From positions 1,178,001 through 1,242,000 of the forward strand of contig NZ_AP022608.1 of assembly GCF_010728925.1 (NCBI RefSeq): a stretch of DNA of 64,000 bases. The letters run 5' to 3'. Under the pieces are notes generated by a model, which ran no database searches, had not been told where the DNA came from, and was given only the letters and a program-made list of their open reading frames with translations. Of the stretch, positions 43,594 to 46,559 are shown in pieces. Source of the DNA: Mycolicibacterium gadium. Lineage in GTDB: Bacteria; Actinomycetota; Actinomycetes; Mycobacteriales; Mycobacteriaceae. Each line of letters opens with the position of its first letter. Positions within the stretch are counted from its first letter, which is position 1. A program made the translations under genes and the position numbers.

Positions 43594-44531
43594 CCCACCC
43601 AGGATCAGGGGCTTCCTCGGTCCCCGTGCGCCTGCGCGGGGTCAGCAAGCGGTACGGGTCGACGACGGCGGTGGCAGGTCTCGACCTCGACGTCGAGACC
43701 GCCGAAGTGCTCGCGCTGCTCGGCCCCAACGGCGCGGGCAAGACCACGACGGTCGAGATGTGTGAGGGCTTCATCAAGCCCGACTCGGGCACGATCGAGA
43801 TCCTCGGCCTGGATCCGTTCGGCGACAACGCCGCGGTCCGCGAACGGATCGGTGTGATGCTGCAGGGCGGCGGCGCGTACCCCGCGGCGCGGGCGGGCGA
43901 AATGCTGGACCTCGTCGCCTCCTACGCCTCGAACCCGCTGGACCCCAAATGGTTGATGGACACGCTGGGCCTGACGGAGTCGGCGCGCACGACCTACCGC
44001 AGGCTCTCGGGTGGCCAGCAGCAGCGGTTGGCGCTCGCGTGCGCCGTGGTGGGCAGGCCGGAGCTGGTGTTCCTCGACGAGCCGACCGCGGGTATGGATG
44101 CGCATGCCCGAATCGTGGTGTGGGAGTTGATCGATGGACTGCGCCGCGACGGCGTCACCGTGGTGCTGACCACCCATCAGCTGACCGAGGCCGAGGAGCT
44201 GGCCGACCGCATCGTCATCATCGATCACGGTGTCGCGGTGGCCAGCGGAACGCCCGCGGAGCTGATGCGCAGCGGTGCCGAGAACCAATTGCGTTTCCGC
44301 GCACCGCGAATGCTCGACTTGTCACTGTTGATATCGGCGCTTCCCGAGACCTATCAGGCGACCGAGACGGCGCCCGGCGAATACCTTGTCGAGGGCGACA
44401 TCGACCCACAGGTGCTGGCGACGGTGACCGCGTGGTGTGCACGGGTCAACGTGCTGGCCACCGATATGCGGGTGGAGCAACGCAGCCTCGAGGACGTGTT
44501 CCTCGACTTGACCGGTCGGGAGTTGCGATGA
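43590..44531 (+). CDS. ABC-2 type exporter ATPase (Rv1458c-like)
   Basis: ATP-binding subunit of a drug/lipid-type ABC-2 exporter, 313 residues. Walker A LLGPNGAGKTTT near residue 43, signature LSGGQQQR, Walker B LVFLDEPTAGMD, H-loop LTTHQLTEAEE. The C-terminal about 80 residues form the regulatory extension common to DrrA-like ATPases. It overlaps mptB upstream and the permease downstream (ATGA), so all three are coupled. The substrate may be an envelope glycolipid intermediate, given the link to mptB; that is inference. Confidence 0.93.
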   Translation: MTHPGSGASSVPVRLRGVSKRYGSTTAVAGLDLDVETAEVLALLGPNGAGKTTTVEMCEGFIKPDSGTIEILGLDPFGDNAAVRERIGVMLQGGGAYPAARAGEMLDLVASYASNPLDPKWLMDTLGLTESARTTYRRLSGGQQQRLALACAVVGRPELVFLDEPTAGMDAHARIVVWELIDGLRRDGVTVVLTTHQLTEAEELADRIVIIDHGVAVASGTPAELMRSGAENQLRFRAPRMLDLSLLISALPETYQATETAPGEYLVEGDIDPQVLATVTAWCARVNVLATDMRVEQRSLEDVFLDLTGRELR

Positions 44532-45301
44532 CGAATCGCTTTGCGCCAGGGACTTTCACGCCGGACCCGCATTCGGCCACGGTGCAGAAGATGTTGGCCG
44601 CGCAGTTCCGCCTCGAGCTGAAGCTCCTGCTGCGCAACGGCGAACAGCTGCTGTTGACCATGTTCATCCCGATCACGTTGCTCGTGGGCCTAACGTTGCT
44701 GCCGTTCGGATCGTTCGGCGACAACCGCGCGTCGACGTTCGTTCCCGCGATCATGGCGCTTGCGGTGATCTCGACGGCCTTCACCGGACAGGCCATCGCC
44801 GTGGCGTTCGACCGCCGCTATGGCGCCCTGAAACGCCTCGGGGCCACCGCGCTGCCGGTCTGGGGCATCATCGCGGGCAAATCCCTCGCGGTGGTCGCCG
44901 TGGTGTTCTTTCAGGCAATTGTGCTGGGCGCCATAGGCTTTGCGCTCGGCTGGCGTCCGCCGATCGCCGGTCTGACCTTGGGTGCGGTGATCATCGCGCT
45001 GGGCACGGCGGGTTTCGCCGCGCTCGGCCTGCTGCTGGGCGGGACACTACGCGCCGAGATCGTGTTGGCGGTGGCGAACCTGCTCTGGTTCGTGTTCGCG
45101 GGGCTGGGTGCGCTGACTGTCGAGAGCGACATGGTGCCCACCGCGCTGGCGTGGATCGCGAGGCTCACGCCGTCCGGAGCGCTGACCGAGGCGCTGACCC
45201 AGGCGATGACGCCGTCAGTTGACTGGTTCGGCCTGGCGGTACTCGCGGTGTGGGGTGCCGTTGCGGCCCTCTGCGCCCTGCGCTGGTTCCGTTTCACCTG
45301 A
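44528..45301 (+). CDS. ABC-2 type permease (Rv1457c-like)
   Basis: Membrane subunit paired with the preceding ATPase, 257 residues with six hydrophobic helices. A segment VAFDRRYGALKRLGATALP between the second and third helices matches the ABC-2 coupling region. ATG overlaps the ATPase stop. The last 87 bp are also covered on the other strand by the PhlG-like hydrolase gene. Confidence 0.92.
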   Translation: MTNRFAPGTFTPDPHSATVQKMLAAQFRLELKLLLRNGEQLLLTMFIPITLLVGLTLLPFGSFGDNRASTFVPAIMALAVISTAFTGQAIAVAFDRRYGALKRLGATALPVWGIIAGKSLAVVAVVFFQAIVLGAIGFALGWRPPIAGLTLGAVIIALGTAGFAALGLLLGGTLRAEIVLAVANLLWFVFAGLGALTVESDMVPTALAWIARLTPSGALTEALTQAMTPSVDWFGLAVLAVWGAVAALCALRWFRFT

Positions 45302-45898
45302 CGTCAGTCGCGGCAGCAGGTATTCCAACTGCCCGACTTCTTCGATGTTGTGCCTGACCCAGGCGTGCACCTTGTCGTCGGGAAAACGCCTGCGCACGAC
45401 GTGATTGACCGCGGCCAGTAGCGCAGAGCGCACACCGAGGTCCATCACCGTGACGTAGTGCGCGCCGTCGCTGCCGGCCGACCACGTGTGCTCAAGTTGA
45501 AAGACCGGGATTCCGGCAATCCGCTTGACCAGCCGGATACCGGTCTGGTCGAGTTTCTCGACGCGGGCGATCTCGTCGATCTGGCATTCGGGCTTGCCGC
45601 CGAACGCCTCGACCATGCGAAACCGCGCGCCTTCGGCCGCACCCCCACCGGGCGCCCGCCGTGCCAGTTCCCAGTTGATGTGGTCAATCGGATGCCATGC
45701 GAGGTAGCGGTCGATGACCACCCCGCCGTAGGAGACCGTGCCGTCGAGATGGGTGAACCAATCGAGCAGCATCGCCGGCGTTACTCCGGTCAGCGGCTGA
45801 TGATCGATCGTGATGCGGCGCCGGCCATGCGGATGGTCGCTGCATTGCACCGTGGCGGTCTCGACGGATCGCAGCGGATAGAGCACCGGACGAGCCAT
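45215..45898 (-). CDS. PhlG-like (DAPG hydrolase family) putative C-C hydrolase
   Basis: A 227-residue protein resembling the 2,4-diacetylphloroglucinol hydrolase (PhlG) fold. It has the YLAWHPIDHINWE segment (His69, His73), an acidic MVEAFGG (Glu97), and HNIEE (His183, Glu187), matching the HxxxE zinc ligands of PhlG and its upstream His and Glu. The true substrate is unknown: candidates are acylated phenolics or polyketides. Its start is preceded by GGAGG and an operator-like repeat. It is divergent from a TetR gene, the usual arrangement for an inducible detoxification enzyme. Its 3' end overlaps the permease gene antisense by 87 bp. Confidence 0.7.
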   Translation of the reverse strand: MARPVLYPLRSVETATVQCSDHPHGRRRITIDHQPLTGVTPAMLLDWFTHLDGTVSYGGVVIDRYLAWHPIDHINWELARRAPGGGAAEGARFRMVEAFGGKPECQIDEIARVEKLDQTGIRLVKRIAGIPVFQLEHTWSAGSDGAHYVTVMDLGVRSALLAAVNHVVRRRFPDDKVHAWVRHNIEEVGQLEYLLPRLTSGETEPAQGAEGRNGTPHREYRQAEPVN

Positions 45899-45909
45899 GA
45901 TATTCCTCC

Positions 45910-45929
45910 AAGATACGGTAGCGTTTCTT
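45910..45929. promoter_or_regulatory. Operator copy 1 (PhlG-like gene side)
   Basis: Imperfect palindrome reading AAGATACG-GTA-GCGTTTCTT, directly upstream of the GGAGG of the PhlG-like gene. Seventeen of its 20 bases are the same as in the copy at 45956-45975. Likely bound by the divergent TetR protein. Confidence 0.65.
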
Positions 45930-45954
45930 ATGCCGCCAGGTTAGGCTTCAGCGG

Positions 45955-45960
45955 TAAGAT
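45955..45960 (+). promoter_or_regulatory. Candidate -10 box of the TetR gene
   Basis: TAAGAT fits TANNNT and overlaps the left edge of operator copy 2, so a bound repressor would block it. The mirror position on the minus strand reads TAAGAA before the PhlG-like gene. Confidence 0.45.
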
Positions 45961-45975
45961 ACGCAAGCGTTTCTT
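45956..45975. promoter_or_regulatory. Operator copy 2 (TetR gene side)
   Basis: AAGATACGC-AA-GCGTTTCTT, an imperfect palindrome (two mismatched pairs in ten). It sits just before the GGAGG ribosome site of the TetR gene, 46 bp from copy 1. Confidence 0.65.
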
Positions 45976-45986
45976 TTGGAGGTGCG

Positions 45987-46559
45987 ATGCGGCGACGTCG
46001 CGGCGACGAGCTGGACACTGCCATCCGGGGTGCGGTACTGGCGCTGCTCGCTGAGCACGGGCCCACGGGAGTGACCATGGAGGCGGTCGCCGCCGCTGCG
46101 CAGACCAGCAAGCCGGTGCTGTACCGGCGGTGGCCGGACCGCGGCGCATTGTTGCGCGACACCTTGCTGCGCATCGCGACCACGGCGATTCCCCATGAGG
46201 ACACCGGCAGCTACCGCAGCGACATGCTCGCGATCTTGCGTGGATGGGCGGCGCTGTTCACCGGGCCGGAATCCACCGCGCTGCGTGCCGCCGTCGCCGC
46301 GGCGGCCCACGATCCAGAGCTGACGGCGGCGTTTCAGCAGGATGTCATCGGCTGGCGTAAGACGGAGATGGCCGCCCTGCTGGCCCGCGGTATAGAACGT
46401 GGCGACGTACGGCCCGACGTCCCCGTCGAGATCGCCCGCGAGCTCGGGCAGAGCGTGCTCTGGCATCGCCTGTTGGTCACCGGCGACCCGATCGATGATG
46501 ACCTCGTCGTGCAGTTGGTCGACGAGGTCCTGGTGCCATTCGTCGCGCCTCGCGGATAA
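45987..46559 (+). CDS. TetR-family regulator
   Basis: A 190-residue TetR protein: HTH at about residues 28-50 (VTMEAVAAAAQTSKPVLYRRW) and a ligand-binding domain of the TetR_C11-like type. ATG with GGAGG four bases upstream. It is divergent from the PhlG-like gene, with two matching operator copies between, so it most likely represses both itself and that gene until a phenolic or acylated ligand is present. The ctaA promoter follows its stop. Confidence 0.88.
   Translation: MRRRRGDELDTAIRGAVLALLAEHGPTGVTMEAVAAAAQTSKPVLYRRWPDRGALLRDTLLRIATTAIPHEDTGSYRSDMLAILRGWAALFTGPESTALRAAVAAAAHDPELTAAFQQDVIGWRKTEMAALLARGIERGDVRPDVPVEIARELGQSVLWHRLLVTGDPIDDDLVVQLVDEVLVPFVAPRG

What the first reader, a model, noticed from the sequence alone, without database searches (positions are those of the whole stretch)
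45215..46559. PhlG-like hydrolase and TetR gene with mirrored operator plus ribosome-site units
The 88-bp gap holds two 20-bp copies of an imperfect palindrome (AAGATACG...GCGTTTCTT), each placed directly before a GGAGG site of one of the two divergent genes. The hydrolase keeps the PhlG zinc-ligand set (His69 or His73, Glu97, His183, Glu187). Together this looks like an inducible enzyme for breaking C-C bonds in acylated phenolic antibiotics or similar compounds.
Basis: partly seen in the sequence, partly recalled or inferred. Interest (0 to 1): 0.7.

Follow-up and report, generated by a model that had tools for sequence, protein, structure and literature searches.

The report
Self-regulating repressor beside PhlG-like hydrolase
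A mycobacterial gene pair, a repressor and a distant relative of an enzyme that cuts carbon-carbon bonds in plant-type phenolics, shares a short control region whose two matching repressor sites have been kept across dozens of species; the layout is a familiar one, but the enzyme group and its signal molecule are uncharacterised.

Summary
The 88-bp gap carries two 20-bp copies of AAGAWACG-N4-CGTWTCTT (45910-45929, 45956-45975), 0 and 2 nt from the GGAGG of the two divergent genes. They are the genome's only sites with at most 1 mismatch. In 148 genus genomes the motif occurs in 36 of 36 with the hydrolase gene and 1 of 112 others. Relatives reveal a promoter: TTGCGT inside the tetR-side site, 17-18 bp, then TANNNT, in 63 of 64 distinct gaps. 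Two genomes lacking the hydrolase-side site and its ribosome site look leaderless, fitting the same start.

The hydrolase is a distant, short PhlG relative: best solved-structure matches are PhlG and phloretin hydrolase; zinc-ligand equivalents H73 (not H69), E97, H183, E187 are kept in 266-267 of 267 sequences. It misses the Pfam DAPG-hydrolase cut-off, and two of three recalled PhlG substrate contacts are not kept, so a phloroglucinol substrate is unsupported.

Best reading: a single-target, self-regulating repressor switch for a PhlG-like metallohydrolase, analogous to phlH-phlG. New member of a known kind; substrate and inducer unknown.

The parts
45215..45898 (-). PhlG-like hydrolase (227 aa, Bet v 1 fold). 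Ligand equivalents H73, E97, H183, E187; catalytic-His equivalent H137
   Evidence: ORF; model mean pLDDT 87.3; PDB fold matches 3hwp and 5xey/5xe5; conservation
45987..46559 (+). TetR-family repressor (190 aa; TetR_N + TetR_C_11)
   Evidence: Pfam matches above cut-off, 40.3 and 103 bits
45910..45929 (-). operator O2, hydrolase side
   Evidence: within 3 mismatches in 62 of 64 distinct gaps
45956..45975 (-). operator O1, tetR side; carries the hydrolase -35-like element
   Evidence: within 2 mismatches in 64 of 64 distinct gaps
45961..45966 (-). TTGCGT, -35-like element of the hydrolase promoter, inside O1
   Evidence: TTG at O1 positions 10-12 in at least 63 of 64; 17-18 bp before TANNNT in 63 of 64
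45938..45943 (-). TAACCT, -10 element of the hydrolase promoter
   Evidence: M. smegmatis -10 rule from PMC6448022 passages
45931..45931 (-). predicted hydrolase transcription start (inference)
   Evidence: spacing rule applied; agrees with the two leaderless relatives
45905..45909 (-). GGAGG ribosome site of the hydrolase, directly after O2
   Evidence: 62 of 64 gaps have a GGAG/AAGG-type site 0-3 nt after O2
45978..45982 (+). GGAGG ribosome site of tetR, 2 nt after O1
45955..45960 (+). TAAGAT, candidate tetR -10 element overlapping O1 (uncertain)
   Evidence: TANNNT at this offset in 44 of 64; a second candidate 13 bp upstream in 30 of 64

Best explanation
A local, single-target repressor switch. 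A TetR dimer binds O1 and O2. On O1 it covers the -35-like element of the hydrolase promoter and probably the tetR promoter; on O2 it sits just after the hydrolase transcription start, up to the ribosome site. Both genes are thus held off. A small ligand, probably the enzyme's substrate or a relative of it, releases the repressor; the enzyme, a zinc-dependent Bet v 1-fold hydrolase of PhlG type but of a separate short subfamily, then breaks the compound down. Shown here: fold, conserved ligand positions, operators, their tie to the cassette, promoter geometry. Inferred: repressor binding, zinc, C-C bond hydrolysis, ligand and substrate.
For: Operators kept in 62-64 of 64 distinct gaps; motif (at most 1 mismatch) in 36 of 36 hydrolase-bearing and 1 of 112 other genus genomes, never more than two sites. 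Fixed O1 centre against free O2 centre and TTGCGT-17/18-TANNNT in 63 of 64. Two genomes without O2 and ribosome site have the ATG 7 nt after the -10 element. PhlG and phloretin hydrolase are the first Foldseek matches and the only rows of the 50 shown with 190 aligned residues; profile comparison with PF18089 proteins probability 89.9, E 1.7e-6; ligand equivalents kept in 266-267 of 267 listed homologues. Precedent: PhlH represses phlG and is released by its ligands (PMC8003664, PMC11878095, passages).
Confidence: 0.62

Rival explanations
1. The repressor switch is as above, but the protein does not hydrolyse C-C bonds: it is another kind of Bet v 1/SRPBCC protein, for instance a cyclase, a ligand binder or a different metallo-hydrolase.
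For: Below the PF18089 cut-off; only part of the recalled PhlG pocket is kept; cyclases and other Bet v 1 proteins score Z close to PhlG; one homologue carries the name SRPBCC family protein.
Against: The ligand and catalytic-His equivalents are invariant or nearly so in 267 sequences; only the PhlG-type structures align over 190 residues among the rows shown.
Confidence: 0.3
2. A phloroglucinol-type antibiotic hydrolase: induced by and acting on acylated phloroglucinols or phloretin.
For: Distant PhlG kinship; phlH-phlG precedent; Y65 aligns with recalled PhlG Y121 and is invariant.
Against: Recalled contacts N132 and Y229 not kept (W76; M152 is Met, Leu, Phe or Val in the family); separate PF18089 gene in the same genome.
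Confidence: 0.15
3. The repeats act in RNA: hairpins beside the ribosome sites that control translation.
For: Each repeat lies at a GGAGG site; one relative's leader folds better than most shuffles (z -1.91, 10 of 200 as good).
Against: The window leader folds no better than shuffles (z +0.98). An A-A mismatch in the would-be stem is kept in 55 of 62 O2 and 49 of 64 O1 copies. The tetR-side copy is often not next to the ribosome site. O1 holds promoter elements.
Confidence: 0.04

Closest known systems
phlH-phlG of Pseudomonas (TetR repressor PhlH, DAPG hydrolase PhlG)
   Same: TetR gene next to a PhlG-type hydrolase gene, operator between them, repressor controls the hydrolase (PMC8003664 and PMC11878095, passages).
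   Different: Hydrolase is shorter, below the PF18089 cut-off and lacks two of three recalled substrate contacts; no antibiotic biosynthesis cluster seen beside it; two operators that also fit self-regulation; kinship of the two repressors not tested.
M. abscessus phloretin hydrolase (PDB 5xe5, 5xey) and Rv1775-type PhlG proteins of mycobacteria
   Different: About 15% identity. The genome has its own PF18089 gene elsewhere (L098, 184 bits), as do 34 of 60 genus genomes in total. Rv1775 is described in PMC8562490 (passages); that L098 is its counterpart is recalled, not tested.
Divergent TetR-enzyme pairs of mycobacteria in general
   Same: About 60% of the mycobacterial TetR genes surveyed are divergent to a neighbour, mostly within 200 bp, and palindromic motifs were predicted (PMC4482099, passages).
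   Different: That survey tabulates motifs for 30 regulators as logos I could not see; whether this motif is among them I cannot say.

Membership tests
DAPG hydrolase family (Pfam PF18089) | score above the curated cut-off (22.7 bits) | tested here: not met
   Window protein 15.3 bits. Of 9 relatives scanned singly 3 pass (30.4, 29.7, 25.3); 16 of 18 alignment members match at E up to 0.1. So PhlG-like, not filed as a family member.
PhlG-type hydrolases | Bet v 1-type fold over the whole PhlG domain | tested here: met
PhlG-type hydrolases | zinc ligands His, Glu, His, Glu (PhlG 129/160/270/274, recalled) | tested here: met
   H73, E97, H183, E187 by way of the alignment (chain numbering minus 8); E97 needs a one-residue shift. 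Kept in 267, 267, 267 and 266 of 267.
PhlG-type hydrolases | catalytic His (PhlG H214, recalled) | tested here: met
   H137, 266 of 267.
PhlG-type hydrolases | phloroglucinol contacts (PhlG Y121, N132, Y229, recalled) | tested here: not met
   Y65 kept; W76 and M152 in the other two places. Placement of N132 is uncertain because PhlG has an insertion there.
PhlG-type hydrolases | zinc-dependent C-C bond hydrolysis | not testable with these tools
   needs purified protein
TetR-family repressors | TetR_N DNA-binding domain and a TetR C-terminal domain | tested here: met
   TetR_N 40.3 bits (cut-off 24), TetR_C_11 103 bits (cut-off 32); all-helical model
TetR-family repressors | binds the palindromes O1 and O2 | not testable with these tools
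   Indirect only: motif tied to the cassette in 36 of 36 against 1 of 112 genomes
phlH-phlG system | divergent tetR and hydrolase with operator between | tested here: met
phlH-phlG system | regulator homologous to PhlH | not tested
   No direct comparison with PhlH was made; the 9 PDB sequence matches of the TetR carry no such name.

The most novel reading that the evidence does not exclude
The protein stands for a separate, short subfamily of Bet v 1-fold zinc C-C hydrolases whose substrate is not a phloroglucinol, and its dedicated repressor, with no other target in the genome, senses that unknown compound; finding the inducer would reveal an unrecognised acyl-aromatic or quinone-like challenge met by environmental mycobacteria.
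Probability: 0.35. Interest if true: 0.5.

Novelty: new member of a known kind. Interest (0 to 1): 0.33.

Why it matters
It gives an operator already tested by evolution (AAGAWACG-N4-CGTWTCTT), a promoter prediction and a single-target repressor for an uncharacterised enzyme group whose members, where a source names them in the listed hits, are mostly called hypothetical protein and sometimes DAPG hydrolase domain protein. Because the repressor seems to control only this locus, its inducer should point to the substrate. Natural variants without O2 allow the role of each operator to be tested.

Tried and rejected
Sequence searches of the PDB with the hydrolase, single and as a profile, found no relative (the profile's one row was a tRNA ligase at E 0.78); the link came from fold matches and profile comparison. 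RNA-hairpin control was considered and given low odds. A wider regulon was sought: the only further own-genome site has 2 mismatches and lies inside an open reading frame of L097, and the reversed control also gives one site. In one search the reversed control hits 4 of 148 genomes. Neighbours of five relocated or unlinked loci (L036, L039, L047, L052, L056; 20 proteins in all) gave no consistent pathway; L061 was listed but not scanned. A FAD-oxidase gene beside tetR was found in L036, L049, L090 and L093 only (flanks are 1.5 kb in many loci). Whether TetR_C_11 regulators of known function bind a similar site was not pursued, and the TetR model was not searched against folds.

Papers: operator half-sites with TetR gave 469 papers holding two of three terms, the 20 listed looking like chance letter matches; 'DAPG hydrolase' with mycobacteria and TetR gave 20 listed rows, none holding the first term. 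Other listings. The primary PhlG, MaPhlG and PhlH papers are not held, so PhlG residue numbers are recalled; as a check, all eight recalled residues match the residue type in the 3hwp sequence at one constant offset of 8.

Dropped before counts: of 94 loci, 11 had no tblastn match to this TetR in the DNA held, 1 (L064) is a decayed cassette, and 18 with a gap identical to another were removed, leaving 64. The homologue set is 267 distinct of 303 proteins: the best 120 listed of 781 hits and of 1086 hits, overlapping, plus 93 loci, so distant members are under-sampled. In the genus count 11 genomes with only a tail match and G147 (a 38-residue fragment, no motif) were counted as not bearing the gene.

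Full report
What is there. The hydrolase ORF (45215-45898, minus) and the tetR ORF (45987-46559, plus) are divergent across 88 bp. Two copies of an imperfect palindrome lie in the gap, 46 bp apart. I call the tetR-side copy O1 (45956-45975) and the hydrolase-side copy O2 (45910-45929). GGAGG follows O2 directly and O1 after 2 nt.

Chance. The pattern AAGAWACG-N4-CGTWTCTT with up to 3 mismatches occurs twice in the window, 0.15 expected. With up to 2 mismatches the 5.96-Mb genome holds these two perfect sites and one 2-mismatch site; the reversed control finds one.

Relatives. Genome contigs gave 64 loci; the nearest named one is M. tusciae at 94% protein identity. A 148-genome genus sample gave 48 genomes with a match, of which 36 carry the gene, whole or broken, 11 match only in the tail and 1 holds a 38-residue fragment. 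Of 94 loci examined, 11 (Nocardioides and Streptomyces) have no match to this TetR in the DNA held, 1 is decayed, and 82 have the divergent tetR, giving 64 distinct gaps. The named ones are mycobacteria, plus two Knoellia and an actinobacterial MAG. O1 is within 2 mismatches in 64 of 64; O2 within 3 in 62 of 64. In three loci (L014, L019, L022) O2 is turned round, as expected if a dimer accepts both half-sites, AAGAAACG and AAGATACG.

Specificity. In the 148 genomes the motif with at most 1 mismatch occurs in 37: the 36 with the hydrolase gene and one other (G118) of the remaining 112; no genome has more than two sites, and the reversed control hits 4 genomes (read). The repressor therefore appears to serve this cassette alone.

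Promoter. The centre of O1 is nearly fixed (TTG in at least 63 of 64 at each position) while that of O2 is free. TTGCGT in O1 is followed after 17 bp (54 gaps) or 18 bp (9 gaps) by TANNNT, 63 of 64 in all, against about 1.3% expected per position. TANNNT is the preferred -10 sequence in M. smegmatis, with ANNNT lying between -13 and -6; that study found no consensus at -35 genome-wide (PMC6448022, passages), so the -35 role is an inference from conservation. In L045 and L091, which may be one lineage, O2 and the ribosome site are missing and the ATG begins 7 nt after the -10 element, so the transcript would be leaderless. The same spacing puts the window's start at 45931, O2 at about +3 to +22 and the ribosome site right after it. 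The tetR promoter is less clear: TANNNT overlapping O1 fits in 44 of 64 and another place in 30 of 64. Centre spacing of O1 and O2 ranges from 38 to 48 bp in the 62 gaps with both, which argues against strict helical phasing.

Context. In 43 of 53 tetR-bearing genome-contig loci (L064 included) the cassette has the ABC-transporter and ctaA genes on its two sides, as in the window; in 10 neither was found. The hydrolase tail beyond residue 198 is antisense to the permease end, residues 205-227 have pLDDT below 50, the tail is missing from shorter relatives, and it explains the tail-only hits in 11 genomes. The genome's separate PF18089 gene directly follows a FAD-oxidase gene.

Verdict. A well-conserved TetR switch on a distant PhlG-like enzyme. 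The layout is ordinary for mycobacteria (PMC4482099, passages) and closely parallels phlH-phlG (PMC8003664, PMC11878095, passages). Substrate and inducer remain unknown; the phenolic-antibiotic reading is possible but not favoured.

Noticed in passing
window 45215-45301: The last 87 bases of the hydrolase ORF are antisense to the end of the ABC-permease gene (44528-45301); this overprinted tail is predicted disordered and is missing in shorter relatives.
   Followed up: partly
L045 4931-4982; L091: O2 and the ribosome site are absent and the hydrolase appears leaderless, a natural variant.
   Followed up: yes
L098 1357-2133 (G000:C1, near 4.53 Mb): The same genome carries a separate PF18089 protein (184 bits) directly after a FAD-oxidase gene; the pair recurs in the 12 further PF18089 loci fetched.
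   Followed up: partly
L036 2787-4160; L049; L090; L093: Where the cassette lies away from ctaA in the M. asiaticum/intermedium-type loci, a berberine-bridge-like FAD oxidase gene lies downstream of tetR on the same strand in these four.
   Followed up: partly
L064; genomes G064 and G099: Decayed or split copies of the cassette; described only.
   Followed up: no
P0041 and P0103: Single homologues departing at the catalytic-His (Asn) and last-ligand (Gly) positions; could be sequence errors.
   Followed up: no
genome G118, contig C55, 42513-42532: The one motif match with 1 mismatch in a genome without the hydrolase gene; surroundings not read.
   Followed up: no
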